Part shown: piece after piece, positions 4,545 through 21,621 of the stretch
Numbering within the stretch: the stretch's first letter is position 1
Layout of the letters: each line of letters starts with the position of its first letter
IMG/VR virus record: IMGVR_UViG_3300049893_001283
Span: 1 to 28,831 of that record
Length of the DNA: 28,831 nucleotides
Direction: 5' to 3' (one strand)
Source of the DNA: a virus
Program-made: the position numbers and the translations under genes
Notes under the pieces: model-generated
What the model was told of the DNA's origin: nothing
Database searches by the model: none
Seen by the model: only the letters and a program-made list of their open reading frames with translations

Positions 4545-5183
4545 ATGGCCAAAGACCTCAAAGCACTAATCCGCGAAATCACCAAGGAAGTCATTGACGA
4601 AATGACCACGACTGGTGCTGTCGCTGGCTATAATACTCCAAACGCCTTTGGCAAGAATCCAAACAAGAAGCGTGACGCTGCTCGTTCAATGCCCGGTGGA
4701 ACCGTTGTTGGAGAAACCGACACGGATGAAACCACAGTTGGTGAAAACGAAAGCATGACCATTCGTCGCTCGCTCGAAGAGTCCGAAGAAAAGGACAGAA
4801 CTGGAATGAAGTGTGAGAAGTGTCACAAAGGCACATATCAAGAAACCAGCCAGTTCGATGATGCTGACGGCGTGCTCCATTGCACCGAATGTGGTATTTC
4901 GGTATCGAGATATTCACACGGTCTCAATGAAGGCCGCAGCCGTTATCGTAATTTCAAAGAAAGTGACCTGATGAGGAATCATGCCAAGATTTCTTATGGC
5001 GTGAATCAGGCAAAAAAGATGCTCAGTGAAGTGGAGTATCTTCTTAACATCTGCGAACGCCTCAAGACCGAGGCCAACATCAAGAACTCCAACTTGTGGA
5101 AAAGAACGCAGCCAGACATGAAAGAGATTCACAAGCGTCTCAAGAACATCGCCAGCCGCATCAAAAAAATGGAGAAAGAATAA
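4545..5183 (+). CDS. Zinc-ribbon protein with capsid-targeting-like N-terminus
   Basis: This 212-residue protein has no named family that I recognise. Residues 90-116 form a four-cysteine zinc ribbon, C90-x2-C93-x19-C113-x2-C116, with typical knuckles (CEKCHKG and CTECGIS). The N-terminus MAKDLKALIREITKEVIDE is an amphipathic helix with three possible [L/I]-x-E-type sites, like several neighbours. Residues 20-85 are Gly/Thr/Glu-rich and probably flexible. The C-terminal part (about 125-212) is helical and basic, with GLNEG at 126-130 as another possible protease site. The gene starts 1 base after the preceding stop and is followed by another small gene after 3 bases, so the genes are probably co-transcribed. 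Nucleic-acid binding inside the head is a reasonable inference but is not shown. Confidence 0.85.
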   Translation: MAKDLKALIREITKEVIDEMTTTGAVAGYNTPNAFGKNPNKKRDAARSMPGGTVVGETDTDETTVGENESMTIRRSLEESEEKDRTGMKCEKCHKGTYQETSQFDDADGVLHCTECGISVSRYSHGLNEGRSRYRNFKESDLMRNHAKISYGVNQAKKMLSEVEYLLNICERLKTEANIKNSNLWKRTQPDMKEIHKRLKNIASRIKKMEKE

Positions 5184-5186
5184 CTT

Positions 5187-5690
5187 ATGAATCTAACCGA
5201 AATCGCCAAAAAAATTCTCAATGAAGATTCTTGGGGCAATAACCCAAGTGCCGCTGCTGGTCAAAATCCGGGCGAGCAGACCGCTGCTACACCACCACCG
5301 GCCACCGGCAACGTCAAATTCCATGACATCAAGAAGGATTATACCACCTTCACGTCTGCCATTGAAAAGCAAGAAGAAGCAGCCAAGAAGAAGTTTGACG
5401 CCGATTTGACCAAGGCGCTTGGCAACAAGAAAATCACCGTTCGTGCCAGCAAGGGTTCGGTGGGACAGGTTGAAAAAGACTATTCTCTCACCGTCGCGTC
5501 CGCTGATATCGTGTATCTCAAAGACAAGTTCTATGTCGTTTTGGTTGGCACAGACAAATCCGAATATTACATCAACACCGATTTCAAAATCAAGGTTGAT
5601 GCAACAGCCCCAGCCGCACCAGAAATGGCATCCGGTAAAACGGGCAACATCGTGCATCAGCCAGTGATTGGCACTTCAGCTAAAGGATAA
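5187..5690 (+). CDS. Small head-cluster protein with capsid-targeting-like N-terminus
   Basis: I do not recognise this 167-residue protein. It opens with MNLTEIAKKILNEDSWG, a short amphipathic segment ending in ILNE, which fits the [L/I]-x-E cut site of T4-type prohead proteases. A Pro/Ala/Thr-rich linker (about 20-48) follows, then a charged helix (about 50-80), then a small beta-rich domain (about 85-145, containing KITVRASKGSVGQVEKDYSL and KFYVVLVGTDKSEYYI). There is no signal peptide or membrane segment. It sits 2 bases before the prohead protease gene. The architecture, with a targeting-like peptide, a linker and one compact domain, suggests a core or internal head protein, but that is inference. 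Confidence 0.82.
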   Translation: MNLTEIAKKILNEDSWGNNPSAAAGQNPGEQTAATPPPATGNVKFHDIKKDYTTFTSAIEKQEEAAKKKFDADLTKALGNKKITVRASKGSVGQVEKDYSLTVASADIVYLKDKFYVVLVGTDKSEYYINTDFKIKVDATAPAAPEMASGKTGNIVHQPVIGTSAKG

Positions 5691-5692
5691 CC

Positions 5693-6325
5693 ATGAGCAA
5701 GCAACTACTAGTCGATTTCATTCCATTCGAGATTACTCCTCAGATTTTGAGTGAGGCTCGTTCCGCAAATCCAAATGCACCATTGGTGCTCAAGGGTCCA
5801 TTGCAAAAGGCCGGTGAGAAAAATCACAACGGTCGCGTGTATCCTCGCCGTGTTCTCGAACGCGAAGTTGAGAAGTATCAGCAAATCATCAAAGAGCGTC
5901 GTGCTCTTGGTGAACTGGACCACCCAGATAGCAGCGTCATCAATCTCAAGAACGTGTGCCACAACGTTGTGGAGTGTCACTGGGAAGGCGATACCGTAAT
6001 GGGCACAATCGAAATTCTCACCACACCATCCGGCAACATTGCCCGCGACCTCATCAAGAACAACATTCGCATTGGTATCAGCAGCCGTGGTCTTGGTTCT
6101 ACTCGCCAAATGAGCGAGAACACCGTTGAAGTTCAAGACGACTTCGAGCTGCTTTGCTTTGACCTCGTGTCCTCCCCATCTACTCGTGGAGCTTACATGA
6201 ATCTCAGCGAAGGTGTCATTAAGGAAGGTTCCAACCAATCCCAAATCATCACCGACCGCAAGCAAATTGACAAGTATCTCAAGGTGGAAGGTCTCGTGCG
6301 CGACATTCTTTCCGAGATTCGCTAA
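5693..6325 (+). CDS. Prohead core protease, T4 gp21-like
   Basis: This is the maturation protease that removes scaffold and targeting peptides from prohead proteins before DNA packaging. At 210 residues it is close to T4 gp21 (212). The family core is visible: PLVLKGPLQKAGEKNHNGRV, then GELDHPDSS with the predicted catalytic His77, then IRIGISSRGLGS with the Ser130/131 nucleophile candidates, then FDLVSSPST near 156-164. This is the T4 type of herpesvirus-assemblin-like serine protease. LSE-G at 171-174 after the catalytic core fits self-cleavage and would release a C-terminal tail. T4-type enzymes cut after [L/I]-x-E, and many proteins in this window carry such sites near their N-termini, including the capsid protein. 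The gene lies between small core-like genes, as in T4. Confidence 0.94.
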   Translation: MSKQLLVDFIPFEITPQILSEARSANPNAPLVLKGPLQKAGEKNHNGRVYPRRVLEREVEKYQQIIKERRALGELDHPDSSVINLKNVCHNVVECHWEGDTVMGTIEILTTPSGNIARDLIKNNIRIGISSRGLGSTRQMSENTVEVQDDFELLCFDLVSSPSTRGAYMNLSEGVIKEGSNQSQIITDRKQIDKYLKVEGLVRDILSEIR

Positions 6326-6326
6326 C

Positions 6327-6590
6327 ATGAAAAAATCAGAACTCAAACAACTGATTCGAGAAGTTCTTCGCGAACATCAAAATGACACTTATGCCGATGT
6401 TAAAAAGCATATTGCTTCCGCGTCTGAATACGTAAAGCATATCGAAAAACCGGCTGCATCTAATTCCGAGTTTTCTACCGCACTGAACCTATTGTATCAA
6501 GAACTGAACGACGCTGCAAGTATTGTGCTAGGTCATATCGAGACGATTGACCCAACCAGCGCCTCCAAATACAAACAGCGCCCTCGTTAA
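6327..6590 (+). CDS. Small helical protein with capsid-targeting-like N-terminus
   Basis: This is an 87-residue unnamed protein. I chose ATG 6327, just after the protease stop, over an in-frame upstream ATG at 6213 because the upstream part only overlaps the protease gene in another frame. The N-terminus MKKSELKQLIREVLREH is a clear amphipathic helix with LIRE and VLRE sites. The rest is helical (ASASEYVKHIEKP, STALNLLYQELNDAASIVL) and ends with a short basic tail. Its size and position next to the protease recall the small internal core proteins of T4 (gp67, gp68), but I see no sequence match. Confidence 0.8.
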   Translation: MKKSELKQLIREVLREHQNDTYADVKKHIASASEYVKHIEKPAASNSEFSTALNLLYQELNDAASIVLGHIETIDPTSASKYKQRPR

Positions 6591-6591
6591 T

Positions 6592-7311
6592 ATGCCAGCC
6601 AAATCACAAAAGCTCAAGACAGATGAAGTTGCCACAATTGGGTATGGTGGACATGATATTGCCCGTGAAGACAAATTTGGGCGCAGAATCACGAACATCA
6701 AAAACGAACTGGCAAAGATGGGGTTTGAAATTGATTTCATCTATCATTGCGGTGGCGACGAAGAGCCAATGGAAGTGGATATCACGGCGGTCAACGAAAA
6801 AACCGGAAAGAAAATTTCTTTCACGGTGGAAGAAGGAAAGCCAAAGATTGACATCAAAAAGCTTCCACAAAGCCCAGTAAAAGAAGGCACATGTCAATGT
6901 TGCGGTGGCGACGGCTGGTATGTTGAGCCAGATGAAAAGGGCGAACCAAAACAGGTTCAATGTGATGCTTGTCGGGGTCAAGGAGGGAGTAAAGACCCTG
7001 AACCAAGAATTCGTCCAAGTGGAGAACCAGAAAACGAGCCATTCTTCGAGAACAATCTTCTTGGCAACATGGCCAAAGGCATGATGGGACAACCAAAAGG
7101 TCTCGCAGTCAATGGTAAGACCGTGGACGAATCTTCCGTGGAAATCGAAGACATCGATACGCGAGACTATCCAGATTTCTGTGACGCTTACGTGTCATCT
7201 GCCGCGTTTGAAGACGGCACGGAACTCAATGACGCCGAGCTAGACGAGTTCAACGACAAACATGGCGAATGGATTAATGAAAAAATCCACAACGACCAAC
7301 TTTGGATGTAA
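6592..7311 (+). CDS. Protein with DnaJ-type zinc fingers
   Basis: This 239-residue protein starts at ATG 6592, one base after the previous stop; an in-frame ATG at 6547 lies inside that gene. It contains two CxxCxGxG repeats of the DnaJ cysteine-rich type: C101-Q-C-C-G-G-D-G and C124-D-A-C-R-G-Q-G. It has no J domain. The N-terminal 90 residues look like a small alpha/beta domain (MGFEIDFIYHCGGDEEPMEV, KKISFTVEEGKPKIDI). The acidic C-terminus contains DYPDFCDAYVSSAAFEDG and ELNDAELDEF, a pattern I associate with other phage hypothetical proteins. Unlike several neighbours it lacks the targeting-like N-terminus. A zinc-binding assembly factor or chaperone-like role is possible, but function is unknown. 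Confidence 0.82.
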   Translation: MPAKSQKLKTDEVATIGYGGHDIAREDKFGRRITNIKNELAKMGFEIDFIYHCGGDEEPMEVDITAVNEKTGKKISFTVEEGKPKIDIKKLPQSPVKEGTCQCCGGDGWYVEPDEKGEPKQVQCDACRGQGGSKDPEPRIRPSGEPENEPFFENNLLGNMAKGMMGQPKGLAVNGKTVDESSVEIEDIDTRDYPDFCDAYVSSAAFEDGTELNDAELDEFNDKHGEWINEKIHNDQLWM

Positions 7312-7335
7312 CGACATTTTATATCAACCGCTGTA

Positions 7336-7343
7336 TATTTATA
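7336..7343 (+). promoter_or_regulatory. TATTTATA motif upstream of 7349 gene
   Basis: TATATTTATA ends only 5 bases before ATG 7349. If this is a T4-type late promoter, the transcript would start at or next to the start codon. It helps fix the start of the downstream gene at 7349 rather than at the in-frame ATG at 7262 inside the previous gene. Confidence 0.55.
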
Positions 7344-7348
7344 AGCAT

Positions 7349-8119
7349 ATGAACGACAAGATTACCAACCCATTTCTCAAGCAGATGATTTCTGAAATTG
7401 CCAACAAGAGCAACGAGGGTCGTCTTGTTGATATCAACTGGACCGTATTGAATGAAGGTAAGAAGAAGGGTGGCAAGCCAGCCGCTCTCACCAGTTCCGG
7501 TCTAGGCAAAAAGAGCGGCACACCAAAACCTCTCAAGAGTGACAAGCTCAAGGAAGCCGCCAAGCCAGAAGAAGCTCCAAAGGATGAGCCAAAAGATGAT
7601 TTGCCAGAACTACCAGACCTCGGTGGAGCGGACAAAGCAGAAGCCCCAAAGACAGATGCTCCTGCCAAGGCACCAGCAAAAGACGGTCCACCAGCAGATT
7701 CTCCCGCCGCTGACGCAGCCCCCGCAGAGCCAGCAGCCGACACACCAGCTGATGGTGAAGATGCGGAAGCAGCCGAAGCTGATGCTGCCAAGGCCAAGGC
7801 CGAACTAGAAAAGGCCCGTGCCGAAAAAGACCGTGCTGAGAAGGAAATCGAACAGCACGCTTATATCAAGCTAGGTAGTAACGCCGGTGTTCAGTTCCTT
7901 CTCGGTAAGATTCTTGACCACGCTTTCAAAACCAACACCATCGATGCGCTCGCCGGTGAAATGGTTCAAAAGCTCAAGATTCAAACACCAGAAGACATGA
8001 ACACATTCTCCGAAGATACCGCCGCTTATCGCGTTATCCCGGGTATGCCAGAACTTTTGGCGTCGATGAAGGGTCTTGCTACAAAGCAACCAGACACAGA
8101 CGAAGAAGCAACCGAATAA
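7349..8119 (+). CDS. Ala/Pro/Glu-rich prohead core-like protein
   Basis: This 256-residue protein starts at ATG 7349, which directly follows a TATTTATA motif. The N-terminus MNDKITNPFLKQMISEIANK has an MISE site, and VLNEG follows near residue 34. The middle (about 40-150) is low complexity, rich in Ala, Pro, Lys and Asp/Glu, and carries LPELPDLGG at 85-93, nearly identical to a motif in the portal tail. A coiled-coil-like stretch rich in Ala/Lys/Glu/Arg (about 150-170) precedes a compact C-terminal helical domain (about 172-250, with KLGSNAGVQFLLGKILDHAF). This composition is typical of scaffold or core proteins removed during head maturation. It may replace gp67/gp68 of T4 (inference). Confidence 0.82.
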   Translation: MNDKITNPFLKQMISEIANKSNEGRLVDINWTVLNEGKKKGGKPAALTSSGLGKKSGTPKPLKSDKLKEAAKPEEAPKDEPKDDLPELPDLGGADKAEAPKTDAPAKAPAKDGPPADSPAADAAPAEPAADTPADGEDAEAAEADAAKAKAELEKARAEKDRAEKEIEQHAYIKLGSNAGVQFLLGKILDHAFKTNTIDALAGEMVQKLKIQTPEDMNTFSEDTAAYRVIPGMPELLASMKGLATKQPDTDEEATE

Positions 8120-8130
8120 CACAAAATTTT

Positions 8131-8589
8131 ATGGACATTCTCAAACTAAAGCCACTTATCGAAGGTATCGCATCTTCTGTTCCAGCCAACGTTCCTGAAA
8201 AACAGGAAAAGCAATGGAGCACCGAAGAAAAGCGTGCGGCACTTGAATCAATCGGTGCATATGGTCAATGCGGCAAGCACCTGTATCGTGAACACAATCT
8301 CATGGAGATTGCTCACAAGCTTTCGGAAATCACGAAGGTTGCCCAAGAACTCGCCATTCATGAGACGGTCAACAGCAAGGACGACGGATGGTTTGACAAG
8401 AAGACCGTGGAAACCAATTTCAAGCAACTGAGCAAGCTCAGTGAAGAATTCAACAAGCTCGCCAAGGATGCACACACGCTCCAACAGCGCATGGAAGCCC
8501 TCTATGAAGATGGTGCCCACATCGTTGGCCGCTACTATGAAATCAAGGACTTGAAAGAAGGTATCGCCGTTTCAAAAATCGCCAAGTAA
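8131..8589 (+). CDS. Helical head-cluster protein with targeting-like N-terminus
   Basis: This 152-residue protein of unknown family begins MDILKLKPLIEGIASSVPAN, with LIE-G as a possible prohead protease site. The rest is almost entirely helical, with Lys/Glu heptads (EIAHKLSEITKVAQELAIHE, QLSKLSEEFNKLAKDAHTLQ) consistent with a coiled coil. There is no membrane segment or signal peptide. It lies 11 bases after the core-like protein and just before the 142-base leader of the scaffold gene. An internal head or core component is the best guess from position and N-terminus. Confidence 0.8.
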   Translation: MDILKLKPLIEGIASSVPANVPEKQEKQWSTEEKRAALESIGAYGQCGKHLYREHNLMEIAHKLSEITKVAQELAIHETVNSKDDGWFDKKTVETNFKQLSKLSEEFNKLAKDAHTLQQRMEALYEDGAHIVGRYYEIKDLKEGIAVSKIAK

Positions 8590-8731
8590 CTTTTTTCAAG
8601 AAAAAGTAGCGTTTTTGTAAATTGGTATATATTTATTTTTAGAAAATGCACCATTATTTGGTGCGAGTCCGGTAAAATCACTTTTTGAAACTCTAATAGT
8701 TTCATAACCCTAGTAAGGATTACAAACTATT
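8590..8731 (+). promoter_or_regulatory. Long leader of the scaffold/capsid gene pair, with two hairpins
   Basis: This 142-base gap is the longest non-coding stretch inside the head cluster. It holds an AT-rich TATATATTTATT box (TATTTATT at 8630-8637, one base off the recurrent octamer). Two hairpins follow: GCACCA/TGGTGC with a 5-base loop at 8648-8664, and GAAACT/AGTTTC with a 5-base loop at 8687-8703. An AAGGA stretch lies about 12 bases before ATG 8732. A late promoter with a structured 5' leader for the two most abundant head proteins is a plausible reading. Confidence 0.45.
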
Positions 8732-10084
8732 ATGTCAGACCTACTCAAACAAGCGATTGCCGACGCCAAAGCCGTCCGCGCCACCGCCCTTTCGAATGCA
8801 CGTGTTGCTCTTGAAGAGCACTTTGCACCAAAGCTACAGAGTATGCTTTCTGAGAAGCTAAAGGCCGAAGTTGAAGCATCTGAAGACGAAGGTCTTCCAG
8901 TTGCCGACGCTCCTGTTGCTGATGAAGCACCAGTCGCCCCTGAAGCTGCTCCTGAAGCCTCTCTCGATGCTGCTCCTGAAGCCGCTCTCGATGCTGCTCC
9001 TGTTGCTGATGAAGCCCCAGTTGACGCCGCCCCTATGGGCGACGAAGCCCCGGTTGACGCCGCTCCTGTTGCTGATGAAGCCCCAGTTGACGCTCTTCCA
9101 GCCGATGAAGAAATCGAAGAAGACGCCATGCGCGGCACAATCGCTGCCGAACTCGACCCAACTCTTGCTCTCGCAGAAGCCGAAAAAGCTTCTTCCGACT
9201 ACAAGAAGACAACTTCCGGTGAAAAGACCGAAGACAAGGGTCAAGAAATCGTTGACTCCACAAAGCTCAAGACCAAGGGCAGCTTGACTGCCAAGAATGA
9301 CGCTCGCAAGGCTTCCCCTGACTACAAGAAGACAACTTCTGGTGCCAAGACGGAAGACCCACAGGGCGCATCCAATGAACTTTCCAAGGGCATGAAGAAG
9401 ACCGAGTCTTCTACACCAGCTCTTAAAGAAAATGAAGAAGTTGATGAAGCTTCTCTTGACGAAATCCTCAAGGAACTCGAAGCCTCCGTCCAAGATGTTG
9501 GAATGGCCGACGAAGCTCCTGTTGCCGCTGGTGCAGCTGCTCCTGCCGGTGACGAAGAAATCGACTTGAACGAACTCCTGTCCGAAGACGACGACAAAGA
9601 CGCCGACGACAAGAAGGAAGACAAGGACGAAGACGATAAGGACGACAAGAAGCCAGACTTCCTCAAAGAAGAAAATCTTTCGTTGAAGAAGGAACTACAA
9701 GAATACCGCAGCACAGTTATCTATCTGCGGGACCGTATCAATGAAATTAACCTGCTCAATGCCAAGTTGCTTTACACGAACAAATTGTTCAAGCAAGCCA
9801 ACCTGACCAATGAACAGAAGCTTAAAGTAGTCGAATCGTTTGACCTCACGAAGTCGGTTCGTGAAGCCAAGCTCGTCTACACGACGCTAGCCGAGTCGTT
9901 CAATTTCGGTGCCAAGAAGAATGTTGAGCCAGCCAAGAAGCCGGTCTCCACAACCGTCAAGGCAATCACCGAAGGTCTCGCCAGCAAGTCCGTTGCATCA
10001 ACCAAGCCGACCAATCCAGCAGTCTTGACAGAAGGTGCCGAAATGGCCAACCGCTTCAAGAAACTCGCCGGTATTCGCAAGTAA
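8732..10084 (+). CDS. Prohead core scaffold protein, T4 gp22-like
   Basis: This is the main scaffold of the prohead core, expected to be degraded by gp21 before DNA enters. At 450 residues it is longer than T4 gp22 (269). The conserved part is C-terminal, about 310-395: a coiled coil with INLLNAKLLYTNKLFK, LTNEQKLKVVESFD and REAKLVYTTLAESF, a pattern typical of gp22 relatives. The N-terminal two thirds are low complexity. They contain Ala/Pro/Asp repeats of the type VADEAPVDAAP (about 57-127), a duplicated DYKKTTSG block at about 156 and 197, and a very acidic Asp/Lys run at 286-308. It ends VLTEGAEMANRFKKLAGIRK; LTE-G fits the protease site, and a terminal RFKKLAGI-type peptide is, as I recall, shared by other marine T4-like core proteins. 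It sits immediately before the capsid gene. Confidence 0.88.
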   Translation: MSDLLKQAIADAKAVRATALSNARVALEEHFAPKLQSMLSEKLKAEVEASEDEGLPVADAPVADEAPVAPEAAPEASLDAAPEAALDAAPVADEAPVDAAPMGDEAPVDAAPVADEAPVDALPADEEIEEDAMRGTIAAELDPTLALAEAEKASSDYKKTTSGEKTEDKGQEIVDSTKLKTKGSLTAKNDARKASPDYKKTTSGAKTEDPQGASNELSKGMKKTESSTPALKENEEVDEASLDEILKELEASVQDVGMADEAPVAAGAAAPAGDEEIDLNELLSEDDDKDADDKKEDKDEDDKDDKKPDFLKEENLSLKKELQEYRSTVIYLRDRINEINLLNAKLLYTNKLFKQANLTNEQKLKVVESFDLTKSVREAKLVYTTLAESFNFGAKKNVEPAKKPVSTTVKAITEGLASKSVASTKPTNPAVLTEGAEMANRFKKLAGIRK

Positions 10085-10118
10085 CCTCAACAACAACTCC
10101 TAAACAGGAATTATAATT

Positions 10119-11723
10119 ATGTCAGACATCAAATCACTACTCACAGAGACAGCCAACCCAATGGCCGTCCTCATGTCTCAGACCCGTGGCCTCGTTGCCA
10201 AGTGGGAAAAGACTGGTCTCCTTGAAGGCGTCAAGAGCGACATGGAAAAGTCGCACATGTCCATCCTTCTGGAAAACCAAGCACAGCACCTCATTGACGA
10301 AGCTACCCGCACGGGCACTTCGGCCAATTCCGAACAATGGGCCGGTGTGGCACTCCCACTCGTCCGTCGTGTGTTCGCTGAAATCGCAGCCAAGGAATTC
10401 GTTAGCGTTCAGCCAATGAATCTTCCTTCCGGTCTCGTGTTCTACCTAGACTTCAAGTATGGTAGCGACCAAGCCGGTAAGCCATCCTTCAGCGGCCAAA
10501 GCCTCTTCGGTGGCACAGGCACCAAGCTCGGTTCCACCGACAGCGCAACCAACGGTCTCTACGGCCAAGGTCGCTTCGGCTACACCATCAACGACCAAAG
10601 CACGACTGTCACAGCTACAGCTACGACAGCTTCGTGGGAAGATGCAAAGTTCGTTCCTGAACTGAGCGCTTCTCAAGCAGCAGGCAAGCTCCTCAAGATT
10701 TCTGCCTCGCTCGCTGGCACCAGCTTTGACTCGGTCGGCGTCCGCGCCTTCACCGTGTCTGGCTCCGGTATCGTTGATTTCTATCCGGGCTTCACAACCG
10801 TCGTCGGTAACACCGTTTACTTCATCGTTTCCGGTTCCGGCGTTGGCGCTTCCCCAAGCGTTGCCGTTGCTTACCACAAGCAACCAGCCGACACATCCCG
10901 TGGCGACTTCGAAGACCAAGGCGCTGGCCTACCAAACACCACTGGTATCGCTAACGATATCGGTATCCCAGAAGTCAACTTGGAACTCAAGTCCGAAGCT
11001 ATCGTGGCCAAGACCCGTAAGCTCAAGGCCGTCTGGACCCCAGAATTGGCTCAAGACTTGAACGCCTACCACAGCATCGACGCCGAAGCCGAGCTAACCG
11101 CTCTCCTCTCGGAATACGTCTCGATGGAAATCGACCTCGAAATCCTCGACATGTTGGTTCAAAGCGCTCCAAGCGTCACAACCGAATTCTGGTCCGCTCG
11201 TATCGGTTCCGAATTCAACACAACCACCCGTCTCTTCGAAGACACCGCTGCTAACCGCACGGCCTACGTCAAGAGCACATGGTTCCAAACCCTCGGCAAC
11301 AAGATTCAGAAGGTCTCTAACAAGATTCACCAGCTGACTCTCCGTGGCGGCGCTAACTTCATCGTCTGCTCGCCTGACGTTGCAACCATCATCGAGTCCA
11401 TCCCGGGCTTCACCACAAACACGGACGGCGACCAAGCCAAGTTCGCAATGGGTGTTGCTAAGGTCGGCGCTCTCAGCAACCGCTGGACGGTCTACAAGAA
11501 CCCATACATGACCGACAACGTCATGTTGGTTGGTTTCCGTGGAACGAACTTCCTCGAAACCGGTGCGGTGTATGCTCCATACATCCCACTCATCCAGACC
11601 CCATTGGTCTATGACCCAGTCAACTTCACGCCTCGTCGTGGTGTCATGACTCGTTATGCCAAGAAGATGCTGCGTCCTGAGTTCTATGGCAAGATTGTCA
11701 TCGGCGCTCTGAACGAAGTCTAA
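10119..11723 (+). CDS. Major capsid protein, T4 gp23-like
   Basis: This is the main shell subunit, expected to have the HK97 fold. At 534 residues it is close to T4 gp23 (521). Family sequence is clear: NSEQWAGVALPLVRRVFAEI, FVSVQPMNLPSGLVFYLDFK, VAKTRKLKAVWTPELAQDLN, HSIDAEAELTALLSEYVSME and near the end RRGVMTRYAKKMLRPEFYGK. Residues 58-62 read LIDEA, so the prohead protease should cut after Glu61, close to Glu65 in T4. The leader (1-61) starts MSDIKSLLTETANP, which resembles the short N-termini of its neighbours. An AGGA stretch about 9 bases upstream can serve as ribosome binding site. The gene is followed by strong terminators, as expected for a very highly expressed late gene. No gp24-type vertex protein follows it in this window. 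Confidence 0.96.
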   Translation: MSDIKSLLTETANPMAVLMSQTRGLVAKWEKTGLLEGVKSDMEKSHMSILLENQAQHLIDEATRTGTSANSEQWAGVALPLVRRVFAEIAAKEFVSVQPMNLPSGLVFYLDFKYGSDQAGKPSFSGQSLFGGTGTKLGSTDSATNGLYGQGRFGYTINDQSTTVTATATTASWEDAKFVPELSASQAAGKLLKISASLAGTSFDSVGVRAFTVSGSGIVDFYPGFTTVVGNTVYFIVSGSGVGASPSVAVAYHKQPADTSRGDFEDQGAGLPNTTGIANDIGIPEVNLELKSEAIVAKTRKLKAVWTPELAQDLNAYHSIDAEAELTALLSEYVSMEIDLEILDMLVQSAPSVTTEFWSARIGSEFNTTTRLFEDTAANRTAYVKSTWFQTLGNKIQKVSNKIHQLTLRGGANFIVCSPDVATIIESIPGFTTNTDGDQAKFAMGVAKVGALSNRWTVYKNPYMTDNVMLVGFRGTNFLETGAVYAPYIPLIQTPLVYDPVNFTPRRGVMTRYAKKMLRPEFYGKIVIGALNEV

Positions 11724-11741
11724 TCCAGACTGAATAGCACC

Positions 11742-11760
11742 TTACCATAACAAGTGGTAA
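11742..11760 (+). other. Small hairpin after the capsid gene
   Basis: TTACCA (11742-11747) and TGGTAA (11755-11760) form a 6-base-pair stem with a 7-base loop, 18 bases after the capsid stop codon and just before the main terminator. It may protect the 3' end of the transcript or be incidental. Confidence 0.4.
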
Positions 11761-11766
11761 AAATTC

Positions 11767-11798
11767 AAGCCCCGGTCGAAAGACCGGGGCTTTTTTTT
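11767..11798 (+). terminator. Strong intrinsic terminator after the capsid gene
   Basis: An 11-base-pair stem (AAGCCCCGGTC paired with GACCGGGGCTT) closed by a GAAA tetraloop at 11778-11781 is followed by eight T residues at 11791-11798. This is a textbook Rho-independent terminator. It ends the head transcript after the capsid gene. Confidence 0.93.
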
Positions 11799-11802
11799 GT
11801 CC

Positions 11803-11840
11803 ACAAAAAAGCCCCACAAAATCGGGGGCTATTTTTTATA
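11803..11840 (-). terminator. Terminator of the minus-strand lysozyme gene, probably bidirectional
   Basis: AGCCCC (11810-11815) pairs with GGGGCT (11825-11830). On the minus strand the stem is followed by a T run (bases 11810 to 11805), directly after the lysozyme stop codon. On the plus strand it is followed by another T run (11832-11837), so it can also back up the capsid terminator. Confidence 0.8.
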
Positions 11841-11842
11841 TT

Positions 11843-12499
11843 TTAGGCGGCGTTGTTCATTACCGTCGCGTTCCACTCCATGCGTTTTTTTACTCCACGA
11901 TTTGACGTGGTCTTGTATTCGCGGTGGTTGAGATATTCCTTGGCCGCATCATCAAAGCGGTGGGCGGCGAGCAAGGCCATTGTTTTTGGCCCCATATCGC
12001 CACGATATAATGCGTTCACAATAGCAATTCGAACCGTGAGAGGCAAGGAATCAAAGTTCTTTATAGAACGCTTTGCGACCTGAATCTTGCTGTTTACGTC
12101 TTTTTCTAACAAACGCACAGCCTCGGAGTCTGATATGCCTTTGTCAAAATTTTCACCTTTTTGAATCTTGTGGCCATATGCGATAGTGTCGCTGCCACCT
12201 TCAAGACTTTTGTGGGGATACCACTTTCCGTGAGACCTGTTGTATCCACCGTGCCGGTTGTTGGTGTTATTTTCAAATCTTTTTATAACTTCCGCCGCTT
12301 TGCTCATTAGCTCACCTTGTTCACCGATTCCCGTGAAGTCAATGTCTTTCTGCATATAAGGCGTTCCTGCACCGTCACTTGCCGCGTTCTGATAAGCATG
12401 TGTGACGTGCGGCACCACAAACTGGACTGGTGGCGGTAGGTCTGCGACAGGTGCCTCGATTAAGCGTTGTTCGATTAGAATATCCTTGAGCTTTATCAT
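11843..12499 (-). CDS. GH24-like lysozyme with capsid-targeting-like N-terminus
   Basis: This is the only gene on the minus strand. I chose ATG 12499 (218 residues) because GGGG and a TATTTATA motif lie just upstream; the longer open frame has no such support. Residues 68-218 look like a phage lysozyme that cuts peptidoglycan glycan chains: catalytic Glu76 in VIKRFEN, then WYPHKSLEGGSDTIAYGHKI, where T105 matches the Thr of the usual TIGYGH motif. The Asp of the triad is not clearly conserved (E100 or D104 may replace it), and about 20 residues are inserted after Glu76. The N-terminus MIKLKDILIEQRLIEAP has two [L/I]-x-E sites and matches its head-cluster neighbours. There is no signal peptide or holin gene nearby. 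It may be the endolysin, or a virion lysozyme packaged in the head and injected. Confidence 0.82.
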   Translation of the reverse strand: MIKLKDILIEQRLIEAPVADLPPPVQFVVPHVTHAYQNAASDGAGTPYMQKDIDFTGIGEQGELMSKAAEVIKRFENNTNNRHGGYNRSHGKWYPHKSLEGGSDTIAYGHKIQKGENFDKGISDSEAVRLLEKDVNSKIQVAKRSIKNFDSLPLTVRIAIVNALYRGDMGPKTMALLAAHRFDDAAKEYLNHREYKTTSNRGVKKRMEWNATVMNNAA

Positions 12500-12508
12500 A
12501 ACATCCCC

Positions 12509-12516
12509 TATAAATA
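12509..12516 (-). promoter_or_regulatory. TATTTATA motif upstream of the lysozyme gene
   Basis: Read on the minus strand this is TATATTTATA followed by GGGGATGTT and the ATG at 12499, a gap of 9 bases. The motif keeps its orientation relative to the gene it precedes, which argues that it is a directional signal and not chance AT-richness. Confidence 0.55.
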
Positions 12517-12542
12517 TACCCATCGAACACCTTCCAACCTCA

Positions 12543-12550
12543 TATTTATA
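12543..12550 (+). promoter_or_regulatory. TATTTATA motif upstream of zinc-motif gene
   Basis: CATATTTATA ends 5 bases before ATG 12556. Together with the minus-strand copy at 12509-12516 it forms a divergent pair in the 56-base gap between the lysozyme gene and this gene. No ribosome binding site fits between the motif and the ATG. Confidence 0.55.
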
Positions 12551-12555
12551 CAATT

Positions 12556-13887
12556 ATGCTACTGCGCACACTTGTTGAACAAATTCAGTTTGAAAACGAT
12601 GCGGCTGATGATTCTGGCAGCGTTTCGATTGACAAGAAGATGACCGAGAAAACTCTCGATGATACCTTTGAAGTCACCGACACAGGACTGAATTACATCA
12701 AGCGCGAGCTTGACCGCATGAACAAGAAGGCATCCCGCCTTGGTTTGTCGCCCCTGACTCTCAAGGTTCTTGGTCAAAAGCATACCAAGCTTGGCGACGG
12801 CGATGTGCGCGTCATCAATCAAGTTAAGATTGAAGGTAAGGCTCCGATGATTGACGGTTACGAATTCATTGCAAACATTGAACACTCGGAGGCGGGCAAC
12901 ATCATCAACATTTCGCCGGATGCCAGTCTCAAGAACCTTCCCGCTGAATATCGCACGGTCAATGCAACTTGTGACCACTGCCACACCAAGCGCGACCGTC
13001 ACAACACGTTTGTTCTGAAAGACACGAAGTCTGGTGCGCTGAAGCGGGTTGGTCGCAGCTGCCTCAAGAATTTCTTCCCCGACACCGACCCGAAGGCACT
13101 GATGGCGTATGCCGCGATGCTGGGTAAGGCTTTGAACATTGGTGTTGGTGCGGAGGACATGGAAGATGAAGGTGGTATGGGCGGCGGCGGCAGTTCTAGC
13201 AAATATTACGACGCTGCTGGCTTTCTGGTTTACATTTGCACCGCCTATCTCATGACCGGTAAATATCTCTCCAAGAGCAAGGCTCGCCAAAACATTGACG
13301 CCAGTGGTGGACCCACCACCTCGACCGGAGAACTGGCCATGAACCTGAGATGGAACCGTGATGCCGACGTGCAGGAAGAGGTGCGCAAGCTGCGCCCTCG
13401 TGCCGAAGAACTTGCCGCCAAGATTGAAGATTGGAAGGAAACCAAGGATTGGGACGCTATGGCGACCGCCAAGCCCGAACTGGCCAATTACTTCAACAAC
13501 ATGAAGGTGATTTCCAATTCTCAGGCCATCCAATACAAGAACGCGGGCTATCATGCTTCCTTGCTTGGTTTGTATCTGCGAGATGAGATGGACGCGGTTC
13601 AACGTGAAAAAGTCAAGGCACAGGATTATGTTGGCAAGGTTGGTGAAAAGATTCTCATCGACCTTACCGTGAAACTGGCTCGCCCATTCTACTCCGCATA
13701 TGGCGCGGGCATGATGTATATCTTCAATGACACCGTGGGCAACGAGGTGGTATATTTCGCCTCCAAGGACATGGGTTTGGACACCAACGAAACCTATAAG
13801 GTTCAGGCCACGGTGAAGCAGCAACAAGTTTCCAAATACAACGGTGCTCCGCAGACCATCATCACTCGGGCAAAGATTCTTGACTAA
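12556..13887 (+). CDS. Zinc-motif protein with possible OB-fold C-terminal domain
   Basis: This 443-residue protein has no T4 structural counterpart that I recognise. The central part has a putative metal site: C139-D-H-C142-H within ATCDHCHTKRDRHNTFVL, then VGRSCLKNFF with C169, a pattern seen in some phage and plasmid hypothetical proteins. Residues 225-360 are helical. The last 80 residues (GEKILIDLTVKLARPFYSAY to the end) are beta-rich and could be an OB-like nucleic-acid-binding fold (weak inference). The N-terminus MLLRTLVEQIQFEND resembles the targeting-like N-termini of nearby genes, with LVE as possible site. It is divergent from the lysozyme gene and precedes the neck operon. A DNA-binding protein packaged in the head is one idea; function is unknown. 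Confidence 0.8.
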   Translation: MLLRTLVEQIQFENDAADDSGSVSIDKKMTEKTLDDTFEVTDTGLNYIKRELDRMNKKASRLGLSPLTLKVLGQKHTKLGDGDVRVINQVKIEGKAPMIDGYEFIANIEHSEAGNIINISPDASLKNLPAEYRTVNATCDHCHTKRDRHNTFVLKDTKSGALKRVGRSCLKNFFPDTDPKALMAYAAMLGKALNIGVGAEDMEDEGGMGGGGSSSKYYDAAGFLVYICTAYLMTGKYLSKSKARQNIDASGGPTTSTGELAMNLRWNRDADVQEEVRKLRPRAEELAAKIEDWKETKDWDAMATAKPELANYFNNMKVISNSQAIQYKNAGYHASLLGLYLRDEMDAVQREKVKAQDYVGKVGEKILIDLTVKLARPFYSAYGAGMMYIFNDTVGNEVVYFASKDMGLDTNETYKVQATVKQQQVSKYNGAPQTIITRAKILD

Positions 13888-13933
13888 CATATTATAATTG
13901 ACCTCGGCCCGTCTCATTTGCATGGGACGCCTA

Positions 13934-13941
13934 TATTTATA
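13934..13941 (+). promoter_or_regulatory. TATTTATA motif upstream of the neck operon
   Basis: CTATATTTATA ends 4 bases before ATG 13946, the shortest gap in the set. It marks the start of the overlapping neck/tail-completion operon. A late promoter here would yield a leaderless or nearly leaderless transcript. Confidence 0.55.
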
Positions 13942-13945
13942 GGAT

Positions 13946-15154
13946 ATGGCCGATACATCCATCAATTATACTGTAGACCAAGACAGAGTTCGCTGGCCGG
14001 GAAGTGGTTCAGCCATCACCACTGGCAGCACTCCGTTTGGTTTTTTTGACCTTGATTCGCAATTTGTCTCGGATGCACCGAGCGCAGCGAAGTGGGCGGC
14101 GATGCGTCTCGGATATCCTATCCAAGACGTGGAAATGATTGACGTGAATTTCTACGCTTGTTTTGAAGAAGCAATTTTGGAATATGGCGCTCAAGTCAAT
14201 CAGTTCAACATTCGCAACAACATCGGCGTGCTGCAAGGTAGCAATGCCAATGTAAACTTGACGCAAACCAATGTGGCAGGCAGCGGTCTGCCATTCATGA
14301 TTAAGCTGGCTCAAGGTTATGGCACCGAATTTGGTGTTGGCGGCAACGTTGATTGGAAAACCGGCAGCATCGACGTGAGTGCGGGAAAACAGAACTATGA
14401 TTTGCAGGCACTCTTCGGCACACCGGTTGAAGGTCAGCGCATTGAAATTCGTCGCATTTTCCACCACACCCCACCAGCCCGCATTTACGACCCATTCAGC
14501 ATGACGGGTATGAGCTACAGCAACGTGCTTAACGAAATGGGTTTTGCTGGCTACTCTCCTGCCACTCAATTTCTCATGACGCCAATCTTCGAAGACTTGC
14601 TGCGTATGCAAGCCATCGAATTCAATGATTCGGTGCGCAAGTCGGCATGGAGTTTTGACCTTGTGAACAACAAACTTCGCTTGTTCCCGATTCCAACTTA
14701 CGACATGAAGGTTCACTTCCACTATCTTCTTGGAAGCGAGCGCGACAGCCAAGGCATCAATCCATCTGGGTCATACTACAACGTTTCAGGTTCAGCAGTT
14801 TCTTCCACGACGATTGGTGATTACAGTAACGTGCCATACCAGATAATTCCATACACCAGCATCAACTCGGTGGGTAAGCAATGGATTCGCAAATATTTCC
14901 TCGCGCTGTGCAAGGAAGTGCTTGGCAGCATTCGTCAAAAGTATCAATCGATTCCGATTCCCGGTGCAGAAGTGACTCTGGACGGTGGTGAGCTTCGTCA
15001 AGAGGCCGCAACAGAAAAAACCGACCTTATCACACAATTGCGAGAAAACTTGGAAGCAAGCGGACGCAAGGCACAGATGGAAATGCGTGCCGAAGAAGCC
15101 CGCCAAATCCAAGAAACTCTCAACAAAGTTCCACTGGGTATTTACGTCGGATGA
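13946..15154 (+). CDS. Neck protein, T4 gp13-like
   Basis: This protein is expected to sit between portal and tail and close the head after packaging. At 402 residues it is longer than T4 gp13 (309). Sequence typical of gp13 relatives in environmental T4-like phages is visible: TPFGFFDLDSQFVSDAPSAA, WAAMRLGYPIQDVEMIDVNF, YACFEEAILEYGAQVNQF, then a central beta-rich region (IEIRRIFHHTPPARIYDPFS), and the helical KQWIRKYFLALCKEVLGSIR. The C-terminus is helical (residues about 350-395). The order gp13, nuclease, gp14, small gene, gp15 supports the call. The stop overlaps the next ATG by 4 bases (ATGA), so translation is probably coupled. The assignment rests on motif memory and context, not on alignment. 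Confidence 0.78.
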   Translation: MADTSINYTVDQDRVRWPGSGSAITTGSTPFGFFDLDSQFVSDAPSAAKWAAMRLGYPIQDVEMIDVNFYACFEEAILEYGAQVNQFNIRNNIGVLQGSNANVNLTQTNVAGSGLPFMIKLAQGYGTEFGVGGNVDWKTGSIDVSAGKQNYDLQALFGTPVEGQRIEIRRIFHHTPPARIYDPFSMTGMSYSNVLNEMGFAGYSPATQFLMTPIFEDLLRMQAIEFNDSVRKSAWSFDLVNNKLRLFPIPTYDMKVHFHYLLGSERDSQGINPSGSYYNVSGSAVSSTTIGDYSNVPYQIIPYTSINSVGKQWIRKYFLALCKEVLGSIRQKYQSIPIPGAEVTLDGGELRQEAATEKTDLITQLRENLEASGRKAQMEMRAEEARQIQETLNKVPLGIYVG

Positions 15155-15558
15155 AGCCATTTTCTCTACTAGACCAAATCATGACCAAAGGCCAGCGCGT
15201 GCGCATGGGCTATGTTGGTTTCAAGAAGACACTCAAGCCAGAGGTGAAAACGACCTCGCTTGAGCGTCATTATTACATGATGCTCACTGAGCTTGGCGTG
15301 GACTTCGTTCCGCAATTCCCGCTCGGTGGAAGATACTATGACGCTTATCTACCTGACCACAACATCCTTTTCGAGTTTGATGGTGCTTTCTGGCATCCAA
15401 AGAATGTTGATGAAGCCAAATACGGCTTTCAGAAGAAGTCCATGCGCGTGGATGAACTCAAGACAAAAATGGCCAAGGAAAAAGGCTACAAAATCATTCG
15501 CATCCGTGAAGACGAACCAATCACCACCGAACAAATGAGGAAATTGATATGGGCTTAA
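15151..15558 (+). CDS. Vsr/DUF559-like PD-(D/E)xK nuclease, probable free-standing homing endonuclease
   Basis: This 135-residue protein carries a small restriction-endonuclease fold. The visible core is E38 in SLERHYYMML, D64 in RYYDAYLP, then E75-F-D77 in ILFEFDGAFWHP, a basic helix (DELKTKMAKEKGY) and the strand KIIRIRE. This is the arrangement of Vsr-type mismatch nucleases and DUF559 proteins, in which D64 and E75/D77 bind metal. Free-standing nucleases of this type are often mobile in T4-like genomes. It overlaps the gp13-like gene by 4 bases and the gp14-like gene by 10, so it is fully integrated into the operon. That neat fit argues for long residence or a useful function. It could process DNA during packaging or be a selfish gene. 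Confidence 0.83.
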   Translation: MKPFSLLDQIMTKGQRVRMGYVGFKKTLKPEVKTTSLERHYYMMLTELGVDFVPQFPLGGRYYDAYLPDHNILFEFDGAFWHPKNVDEAKYGFQKKSMRVDELKTKMAKEKGYKIIRIREDEPITTEQMRKLIWA

Positions 15559-16022
15559 AAGGCAGATACTTCTCTCAGCGCGACCTGAATTTCATCAACT
15601 CCATCAATGGAGAGTTGATGGGTGACATTGCGGAAAATCTCATCACCATTTTCAAGATTGCCCCGAACGAGACCAAGACCAACATCTACGGCGAAACCTC
15701 GGCGGATACCGGCAAGTGGTATATGCCGGGTATTCAAATTTCCACGCTTGTTGAGCGCTCGGACATGGAAGCGGAGTATGATGATTTTGGTCCAAATCGC
15801 CGCCAAGACCACGTGTTCAAGATGCGCGAGAAAATGCTGCGCGACCTGAGCTTCTATCCTGAAATTGGTGACATGATTTTCTGGAACGACCGCTATTACG
15901 AAATCGACAACGTGGTGCAAGAGCAGTTGCTCGGTGGCCAATCAGATAAGAGCCACAGCATTATCTGCAACACGCACTACACGAAGATTACTTCGCTCAA
16001 CATTGCGCAAAGGAACGACTAA
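15549..16022 (+). CDS. Neck protein, T4 gp14-like
   Basis: This is a head-completion protein that forms part of the neck ring with gp13. At 157 residues it is shorter than T4 gp14 (256). The C-terminal half has the gp14-like pattern EIGDMIFWNDRYYEIDNVVQ, comparable to GDLIYFPMDNSLFEI in T4. The N-terminus RYFSQRDLNFINSINGELMG is helical, followed by a beta segment (GKWYMPGIQISTLVERSDME). Order and operon position (after gp13, before gp15) agree with T4. Its start overlaps the end of the nuclease gene by 10 bases. I rate the family match as likely but divergent. Confidence 0.76.
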   Translation: MGLKGRYFSQRDLNFINSINGELMGDIAENLITIFKIAPNETKTNIYGETSADTGKWYMPGIQISTLVERSDMEAEYDDFGPNRRQDHVFKMREKMLRDLSFYPEIGDMIFWNDRYYEIDNVVQEQLLGGQSDKSHSIICNTHYTKITSLNIAQRND

Positions 16023-16024
16023 AC

Positions 16025-16327
16025 ATGAATCTCAAAAGCATCATCAACGAAATTGCGCTCAATGAGCCCGCCATCAATCCACCATACATGGACGTGAAGA
16101 AGGGAGACCAATATGTATCAAGGGATGTCAATCGTTCCGGCAATCACATCTGGGTTTATGTCTCCACCGTTCTTGAAGTCGGTCCAATCGAAAAACGCTT
16201 TGGTAAAGACGACCGTGTGGTAACAGTGAAAATTGAAGCGTATGATTTGCAGCAAGGAAAAATCACCAACACGGTCGATGACAAGAAAAAAATTTGGGTC
16301 AGTCAACTACTGAAAGGACTTGTATAA
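16025..16327 (+). CDS. Small beta-rich protein with targeting-like N-terminus
   Basis: This is a 100-residue unnamed protein. It begins MNLKSIINEIALNEPAINPP, with IINE and ALNE as possible prohead protease sites, the clearest example of the shared N-terminus outside the head cluster. The rest looks like a small beta barrel, possibly SH3-like (GNHIWVYVSTVLEVGPIEKR, DRVVTVKIEAYDLQQG). It lies 2 bases after gp14 and 3 bases before gp15, so it belongs to the same operon. If the N-terminus does target the head, this would be another packaged protein encoded among neck genes. Confidence 0.78.
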   Translation: MNLKSIINEIALNEPAINPPYMDVKKGDQYVSRDVNRSGNHIWVYVSTVLEVGPIEKRFGKDDRVVTVKIEAYDLQQGKITNTVDDKKKIWVSQLLKGLV

Positions 16328-21614: not shown

Positions 21615-21621
21615 ATTGCAC

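What the first reader, a model, noticed from the sequence alone, without database searches (positions are those of the whole stretch)
4545..16327. A shared capsid-targeting-like N-terminus on at least eight unrelated proteins
Genes at 4545, 5187, 6327, 7349, 8131, 12499 (minus strand), 12556 and 16025 encode proteins with unrelated bodies but similar starts: a 10-20 residue amphipathic segment followed by [L/I]-x-E (LIRE, ILNE, VLRE, MISE, PLIE, RLIE, LVE, IINE). T4 internal proteins carry an N-terminal capsid-targeting sequence that gp21 cuts after such a Glu, and a gp21-like protease is encoded here at 5693. The pattern predicts a set of head-packaged proteins, including two with Cys-rich putative zinc sites and one lysozyme, that could be injected with the DNA. 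The targeting role is inference; the sequence similarity of the starts is visible.
Basis: partly seen in the sequence, partly recalled or inferred. Interest (0 to 1): 0.75.

Follow-up and report, generated by a model that had tools for sequence, protein, structure and literature searches.

The report
T4-like capsid-packaging tags on phage proteins
A virus of bacteria puts a similar short address label on the front of many unrelated proteins, most likely so that they are loaded into its head and clipped free there, as coliphage T4 does with a few proteins; some of them may then be injected into the host with the DNA.

Summary
A profile made only from the eight starts is enriched about 12-fold at N-termini of unrelated proteins in nine relatives with a T4 gp21-type protease (54 of 1328 N-termini, 47 of 13530 internal segments) and finds 0 of 315 in stretches of three phages without it. 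The spacing matches the T4 capsid targeting sequence (CTS; residues 4, 7, 8, 10). The tag behaves as a module: swapped, missing or duplicated on bodies. Five of the eight families keep a hydrophobic-x-Glu site, several followed by a small residue, as in gp23 and gp21. Published virion proteomics is mixed: in cyanophage S-CREM2 five of six exact-register proteins are in the virion, in S-SZBM1 none of four. Best reading: CTS-type propeptides removed by the phage's own gp21. Packaging, cutting and injection are inferred, not shown, for this phage.

The parts
4545..4601 (+). Propeptide/tag of gene 4545-5183 (Cys-rich): residues 1-19, possible cut after E19 (VIDE|M)
   Evidence: E19 in 32 of 32 distinct sequences, P3 I/L/V in all, next residue M in 31; E11 in 97%
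5187..5225 (+). Tag of gene 5187-5690: residues 1-13, likely cut LNE|D
   Evidence: E13 in 27 of 27, P3 L or I in all, next residue D in 24
5693..6325 (+). gp21-type prohead protease; own site LSE|A at E21
   Evidence: Peptidase_S77 1.9e-24, phrog_207 7.7e-53; E21 in 96% of 45, next residue A or S in 42 of 43
6327..6374 (+). Tag of gene 6327-6590 (87 aa): MKKSELKQLIREVLRE
   Evidence: profile score 18.0, but it is one of the seeds; the same type of start on unrelated genes of relatives; 1 match in 80 loci
6592..7311 (+). Untagged gene whose C-terminal domain stands behind this kind of tag in relatives
   Evidence: tagged in L054, L034, L012, L044, another start in L008, untagged in L046
7349..7456 (+). 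Propeptide of gene 7349-8119: residues 1-36, likely cut LNE|G (not MISE at 16)
   Evidence: E36 in 26 of 26, P3 L/I/V in 25, next residue A/G/S in 25; E16 in 62%
8131..8163 (+). Tag of gene 8131-8589: residues 1-11, likely cut LIE|G
   Evidence: E11 in 88% of 32, P3 Leu in 28 of 28, next residue G in 21 of 28
8732..10084 (+). Probable prohead scaffold (gp22-like by position; no profile search was run on it); probable docking core for the tags
   Evidence: directly before gp23, conserved start MSDLLKQAIADAKAV in relatives; role inferred from T4
10119..10301 (+). gp23 N-terminal region: tag-like MSDIKSLLTE (1-10) and site IDE|A at E61
   Evidence: exact T4 register; E61 in 97% of 34, next residue A or S in 31 of 33; E10 in 65%
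12455..12499 (-). Tag of lysozyme gene 11843-12499 (minus strand): MIKLKDILIEQRLIE, likely cut after E15 (LIE|A)
   Evidence: exact T4 register; E15 in 10 of 13, next residue A in 9 of these 10; low-confidence helix 4-10, disordered 14-51, domain from about 60; T4-lysozyme-like fold
12556..12594 (+). Tag of gene 12556-13887: residues 1-13, QFE|N
   Evidence: E13 in 4 of 4, P3 not always hydrophobic; helix 2-8 at very low confidence, low confidence to residue 30
12664..13878 (+). Body of 12556: phrog_2319 domain (residues 37-441), Cys-rich motif
   Evidence: E 1.1e-63; four homologs read, of 203 records with a match, lack the tag start
16025..16051 (+). Tag of gene 16025-16327: MNLKSIINE
   Evidence: T4 spacing with offset; no match in 80 loci

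Best explanation
The shared starts are capsid targeting propeptides of the T4 CTS type. A short amphipathic helix with hydrophobic residues at the T4 spacing docks the protein on the prohead scaffold core before the shell closes; the phage's own gp21-type protease then cuts after the Glu of a nearby [L/I]-x-E site, which frees the body inside the head. Two classes carry it: constant prohead-core proteins (4545, 5187, 7349, 8131, beside gp21 and gp23) and sporadic cargo (6327, 12556, 16025, probably the lysozyme) that would be ejected with the DNA. Shown here: the shared motif, its enrichment, its modularity and the conserved sites. Inferred: docking on the scaffold, cutting, packaging and injection.
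For: Profile from the eight starts, tested on proteins (60 aa or more) with no BLASTP match to a window protein: 54 of 1328 N-termini against 47 of 13530 internal segments in nine protease-bearing relatives (odds ratio 12, P 2e-30; T4 and the near-copy G007 left out of the pool), 0 of 315 in 100-kb stretches of crAss001, T5 and SPO1 (Fisher 1.2e-5); these three records lack Peptidase_S77, the other 11 of 14 have it. T4 register, chosen from published IPIII mutagenesis (PMC9026906 passages): T4 gives 5 of 246, namely IPII, IPIII, gp24, Alt and gp61.1, not IPI; G006 11 of 80, G003 8 of 219, immuto 5 of 210, Mel-JY01 4 of 217, controls 0. Modules: same domain with and without tag; phrog_2319 homologs without it; three neighbouring genes with identical tag DNA and unrelated rest. 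Conserved sites. Published virions: 5 of 6 exact-register proteins of S-CREM2 detected by MS, one-sided P 0.003; a cyanophage cytidylyltransferase family keeps F-x-x-F-[I/L]-x-E followed by Ala in 41 of 43 distinct N-termini.
Against: No proteomics for this phage. In S-SZBM1 none of 4 exact-register proteins is among the 30 detected; pooled with S-CREM2 P is 0.024. The window profile picks 4 S-CREM2 proteins and none is in its virion list; the offset pattern there is not significant (P 0.13). T4 and Mel-JY01 are only weakly enriched by the profile (2 of 228 and 3 of 203), as are G004 and G005 (1 of 55 and 1 of 69). The exact register is not above the shuffle maximum in G001, G002, G004, G005 and G008, nor the offset pattern in Mel-JY01, T4 and G004. 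The residue after Glu is not clearly small in sporadic tags (12 of 33, 36%, against 26% background). Replication enzymes such as T4 DNA ligase and a 5'-3' exonuclease also match, so single assignments can be wrong. 16025 and 6327 rest on motif alone. The T5 stretch used as control holds no capsid gene.
Confidence: 0.8

Rival explanations
1. The N-terminal helices dock proteins on the scaffold or shell for head assembly only; they are not cut, or cutting is incidental, and nothing is injected.
For: Four of the eight are conserved head-cluster genes; the residue after Glu in sporadic tags is not clearly small.
Against: Strongly kept [LIV]-x-E sites followed by A/S/G in gp21, gp23, 7349 and the lysozyme family; bodies that look like enzymes rather than head parts carry the tag in relatives, e.g. 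an ADP-ribosyltransferase, a Nudix protein and an exonuclease.
Confidence: 0.12
2. Chance: short starts rich in Lys, Glu and Leu look alike without any common role.
Against: Enrichment in non-homologous proteins of other genomes, none in three control stretches; fixed spacing; swaps and duplication; constancy against a variable linker in cyanophage cytidylyltransferases.
Confidence: 0.04
3. The helix is a signal for something else, such as membrane or host-target contact, degradation or dimerisation.
For: Amphipathic helices serve many roles; the longer form MKKSEL..LIKE..V..E could be a short coiled coil (inference).
Against: It stands on gp23 and beside protease-type sites, and its spacing matches the residues that direct T4 IPIII into the head; five of six S-CREM2 proteins with the register are in virions.
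Confidence: 0.04

Closest known systems
T4 capsid targeting sequence (IPI-III, Alt, gp24) with prohead protease gp21
   Same: Short N-terminal propeptide, hydrophobic positions 4, 7, 8 and Glu 10, [L/I]-x-E site, protease of family S77 encoded between portal and capsid genes, unrelated bodies behind one tag
   Different: Commonest form is L-K-x-[LI]-[LI]-x-E rather than Y-Q-E-F-I-A-E; a longer form with a second Glu-ended turn exists; some relatives carry many more (11 of 80 proteins by exact register in G006, against 5 of 246 in T4); neighbours can share identical tag DNA
Virion-associated enzymes of T4-like cyanophages (SAM hydrolase, APH-like kinase, cytidylyltransferase of S-CREM2)
   Same: Enzymes reported in virions that begin with the same register
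   Different: Aromatic form M-K-x-F-x-x-F-L-x-E; the S-CREM2 paper has no occurrence of 'capsid targeting', 'CTS' or 'N-terminal' (the other papers were not checked for this)
phiKZ/SPN3US head propeptides
   Same: Propeptides cut after Glu by a distant gp21 relative, ejected proteins
   Different: Often long propeptides, A-x-E or S/A-x-E site (PMC5694885 and PMC9026906 passages)
P1 DarB N-terminal packaging signal
   Same: N-terminal 30 residues send a reporter into the capsid

Membership tests
T4-type capsid targeting sequence | N-terminal segment of about 10-20 residues with the hydrophobic positions (4, 7, 8) and Glu 10 found to matter in T4 IPIII | tested here: met
   Exact register in 12499 and gp23; same spacing at other offsets in 4545, 6327, 7349, 16025; NOT exact in 5187, 8131, 12556
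T4-type capsid targeting sequence | [L/I]-x-E cleavage site at the end of the propeptide | tested here: met
   Conserved in alignments of 4545, 5187, 7349, 8131 and 12499; 12556 has Y/Q/I at P3 in 4 sequences; 6327 and 16025 could not be aligned
T4-type capsid targeting sequence | Cognate gp21-type protease in the same phage | tested here: met
   Peptidase_S77 1.9e-24
T4-type capsid targeting sequence | Same kind of tag on unrelated bodies | tested here: met
   124 hits in 12 genomes fall in 88 body families by BLASTP at E 1e-3 (includes T4, near-copies and some likely chance hits)
T4-type capsid targeting sequence | Tagged protein is inside the virion | not testable with these tools
   No proteomics for this phage; from published lists of other phages S-CREM2 5 of 6, S-SZBM1 0 of 4
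T4-type capsid targeting sequence | Propeptide is removed by the protease | not testable with these tools
   Needs mature N-termini
T4 lysozyme-like glycosidase (12499 body) | Lysozyme-type sequence and fold | tested here: met
   phrog_13211 8.8e-8 and phrog_4290 4.8e-6, no Pfam match; Foldseek top hit T4 lysozyme, probability 1.00, but E 2.5e-3 and TM 0.41/0.49, none at E 0.001 or below

The most novel reading that the evidence does not exclude
The CTS is not a peculiarity of T-even coliphages but a portable cargo address used across the T4 superfamily; a phage gains a new head-carried effector by putting a tag of about ten codons on any gene, and the tagged set (in relatives an ADP-ribosyltransferase, Nudix, nucleotidase, exonuclease and NMNAT-like proteins and a 2H phosphoesterase related to anti-CBASS Acb1; in S-CREM2 a SAM hydrolase and a kinase) is a readable list of what these phages inject at the start of infection.
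Probability: 0.55. Interest if true: 0.8.

Novelty: new member of a known kind. Interest (0 to 1): 0.6.

Why it matters
T4-like phages are very common in lakes and seas (general knowledge) and most of their genes have no known role. If the tag is a head address, it sorts many of these unknown genes by sequence alone into those that travel inside the particle. It would explain enzymes seen in cyanophage virion proteomics, for which the S-CREM2 authors left open whether they were carried over in purification (PMC10665884 passages), and give a ready list of candidate early effectors and anti-defence proteins to test.

Tried and rejected
Chance similarity: held unlikely. Glu16 of 7349 as the cleavage site: not supported. 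A small residue after Glu as a general mark of the sporadic tags: not significant. Window profile as a cyanophage detector: failed. Searching for 12556 relatives in viral contigs gave two loci from contigs already held. Two tagged Mel-JY01 proteins that look ART-like by eye, and a third, gave no Pfam match. Tagged 5'-3' exonuclease and radical SAM proteins (G003) and T4 DNA ligase are considered likely false positives. Literature searches for a paper that already extends the CTS to environmental phages listed none by title or start of abstract; the lists were capped and I did not open most papers. A 2010 review says that the internal proteins of T-even phages are a diverse set sharing only the CTS (PMC3012670 passages), and a 2022 review that the CTS may be a general way for T4-like phages to take up proteins (PMC9026906 passages), so the concept is in print.

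Limits. The gene caller is home-made; it mis-called the start of 12499 and missed 6327, so the window list was set by hand. Gene names in the window other than the protease, the lysozyme and phrog_2319 rest on sequence, order and homology to annotated relatives, not on a profile search. The T4 register pattern was written after I had seen the T4 starts, so it is not blind for T4; it was fixed before S-CREM2 and S-SZBM1 were fetched. The pattern was written after seeing the S-SZBM1 start. Rows dropped: partial gp17; proteins under 60 aa in the profile tests and under 40 aa in the register tests; G007 and T4 from the pooled test; G007 and T4 from the tag list; two of 81 loci whose match begins at residue 31; relatives that do not align near both starts (for 7349 and gp22, those of 150 aa or less). 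Counts per family are matching proteins in 80 loci, not loci (one locus gives two pieces of the lysozyme). Controls used 100,000 bases each of crAss001 (102,679), T5 (121,750) and SPO1 (132,562).
Full report
What the window is. The 28,831-base window is a whole IMG/VR virus record, a fragment of a T4-like myovirus: large terminase, portal, three small genes, a gp21-type protease (Peptidase_S77, 1.9e-24), four small genes, a scaffold-like gene, the major capsid protein, then neck- and tail-type genes (names other than the protease are by sequence and order). The nearest isolates by protease are Microcystis phage Mel-JY01 (52% identity) and Flavobacterium phage immuto (42%).

Check of the observation. 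All eight genes are there; 6327 is a separate 87-residue gene. Seven of 22 window proteins (six of the eight, plus gp23) match a pattern drawn from the starts, against 1.2 on average in shuffles; this is fitted to the window. The T4 spacing with a free offset hits 6 of 22 against 0.39 expected and at most 3 in 2000 shuffles. So the similarity is real, though 5187, 8131 and 12556 fit only loosely.

Enrichment outside the window. A position matrix made from the eight starts was run on other genomes and then on proteins with no BLASTP match to a window protein. In nine protease-bearing relatives 54 of 1328 N-termini score above 10, against 47 of 13530 internal segments of the same proteins (odds ratio 12, P 2e-30) and 0 of 315 N-termini in 100-kb stretches of crAss001, T5 and SPO1, which have no S77 protease. 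The T5 stretch holds no capsid gene. The spread is uneven: immuto 10 of 194, G003 11 of 200, G006 7 of 69, G002 13 of 301, but Mel-JY01 3 of 203, G004 1 of 55, G005 1 of 69, and, outside the pool, T4 2 of 228. The 124 hits above 8.5 over all genomes, window included, fall into 88 body families.

Fit to the T4 signal. In T4 the first ten residues of IPIII suffice for packaging; residues 4 and 7 matter for targeting, 8 and 10 for processing, and gp21 cuts after [L/I]-x-E (PMC9026906, passages). A pattern with hydrophobic residues at 4, 7, 8 and Glu at 10 picks five of 246 called T4 proteins: IPII, IPIII, gp24, Alt and the small gp61.1; it misses IPI. It picks 11 of 80 in G006, 8 of 219 in G003, 5 of 210 in immuto, 4 of 217 in Mel-JY01, two of 22 in the window (lysozyme and capsid protein) and none in the three controls; in G001, G002, G004, G005 and G008 the one or two hits are within the shuffle range. 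With free offset the excess is clear in G001, G002, G003, G005, G006, G008 and immuto but not in Mel-JY01, T4 or G004.

Sites. Alignments of relatives from 80 loci around the protease gene show which Glu is kept (distinct sequences, window included). The protease keeps [LI]-x-E at residue 21 in 96% of 45, followed by A or S in 42 of 43. The capsid protein keeps [IV]-x-E at 61 in 97% of 34, followed by A or S in 31 of 33, near the place where T4 gp23 is cut (T4 cut site recalled; T4 sequence). The lysozyme keeps Glu15 in 10 of 13, followed by A in 9. 5187 keeps [LI]-x-E at 13 in 27 of 27, followed by D in 24. 4545 keeps [ILV]-x-E at 19 in 32 of 32, followed by M in 31. 8131 keeps L-x-E at 11 in 28 of 32, followed by G in 21. 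12556 has Glu13 in 4 of 4 but no constant hydrophobic residue two before it. 6327 and 16025 have too few relatives. For sporadic tags the residue after Glu is not clearly small (12 of 33 against 26% background), so the cut position in these is uncertain.

Modularity. The C-terminal domain of gene 6592 occurs behind tags in L054, L034, L012 and L044, behind another start in L008, without one in L046, and behind a long unrelated N-terminus in others such as L014. The body of 12556 is family phrog_2319 from residue 37; of 203 records with a match I read four, and the annotated proteins of Aeromonas phage phiWae14, Salicola phage SCTP-2, Gordonia phage Stormageddon and Vibrio phage phi-ST2 start 1-4 codons before residue 37 or somewhat upstream of it (about residues 24 and 29) and none has the tag. 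In G002 three neighbouring genes share identical DNA over codons 1-10 and differ upstream (37% identity) and further in (28%); in G003 and G006 the tags of neighbours also differ at silent positions, which points to selection on the protein. AlphaFold models give a low-confidence helix 4-10, a disordered stretch 14-51 and a lysozyme-like domain for 12499, and a very low-confidence helix 2-8 with low confidence to residue 30 for 12556.

Bodies. Tagged or probably tagged proteins in relatives include an ADP-ribosyltransferase (PF15633, 2e-5, domain from residue 17; T4 Alt is annotated as one too), a Nudix protein (1e-8), an RNase_T exonuclease (1.8e-12), NT5C-like nucleotidases (below Pfam's cut-off), cytidylyltransferase-like proteins (just above it) and a 2H phosphoesterase (2.1e-7) with a sub-threshold match to anti-CBASS Acb1 (8.8e-5). 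Some hits are probably chance.

Published virions. The exact T4 register, fixed beforehand, was applied to cyanophage S-CREM2, whose virion proteome lists 52 of 219 proteins (PMC10665884, section 18). It picks six proteins; five are in the list: the SAM hydrolase, the APH-like kinase, the cytidylyltransferase and two hypothetical proteins (one-sided P 0.003; 0.35 hits expected from shuffles). The Cas9-like virion protein has a similar motif 15 residues further in. The offset pattern is not significant (P 0.13) and the window matrix picks four proteins, none in the list. In S-SZBM1 (30 of 218 detected, PMC9146016, section 27) the exact register picks four proteins and none was detected; pooled P is 0.024. 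Its one detected enzyme, a cytidylyltransferase, starts MRFRQFIIE|A, one residue short of the register. In 79 loci of this protein and its S-CREM2 counterpart's one relative, 41 of 43 distinct N-termini keep the motif with Ala after it, and the other two keep it behind a non-ATG codon, while the linker behind it varies. Cytidylyltransferase or NMNAT-like proteins are reported in virions of S-SM1, S-SCSM1, S-SZBM1 and S-CREM2 (passages of PMC3037559, PMC9602691, PMC9146016, PMC10665884); that all four are one family was not tested here.

Reading. The simplest account is a T4-type capsid targeting system. Four of the eight (4545, 5187, 7349, 8131) are constant neighbours of gp20, gp21 and gp22, as T4 genes 67 and 68 are, and are better read as core proteins. 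The rest are candidate cargo. What is shown is sequence; docking, cutting, packaging and injection are inferred. The kind of system is known, and a review already suggests it may be general in T4-like phages, so I rate this a new member of a known kind, with unusual breadth.

Noticed in passing
G002 139632, 139859, 140143 (L116, L117): Three neighbouring genes with identical DNA over the first codons and unrelated upstream and downstream sequence: the tag itself appears to be duplicated as a DNA module.
   Followed up: partly
L146:1300-2409 (G008): Probably tagged 2H phosphoesterase with a sub-threshold match to the anti-CBASS protein Acb1; a candidate head-carried anti-defence enzyme.
   Followed up: partly
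L104:6595-7074 (G003) and L083:10276-10923, L083:12056-12715 (Mel-JY01): Tagged ADP-ribosyltransferase (PF15633) and two tagged paralogs that look similar by eye but give no Pfam match; possible counterparts of T4 Alt.
   Followed up: partly
T4 record NC_000866, 18966-19130 and 76061-76885: T4 gp61.1 (MKTFKEFIKE) fits the exact register and gp2, the DNA end protector (MAIFQIINE), fits with an offset; possible unrecognised targeting sequences.
   Followed up: no
window 21616-28125: Very long protein (about 2169 aa) made largely of GTSGTSG-type repeats, perhaps a tail fibre.
   Followed up: no
S-SZBM1 genes 191 and 192 (L168): Two small proteins with the exact register (MKSFKSFLSE, MKTFKQYITE) near the terminase genes, not detected in the published proteome of 30 proteins.
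   Followed up: no
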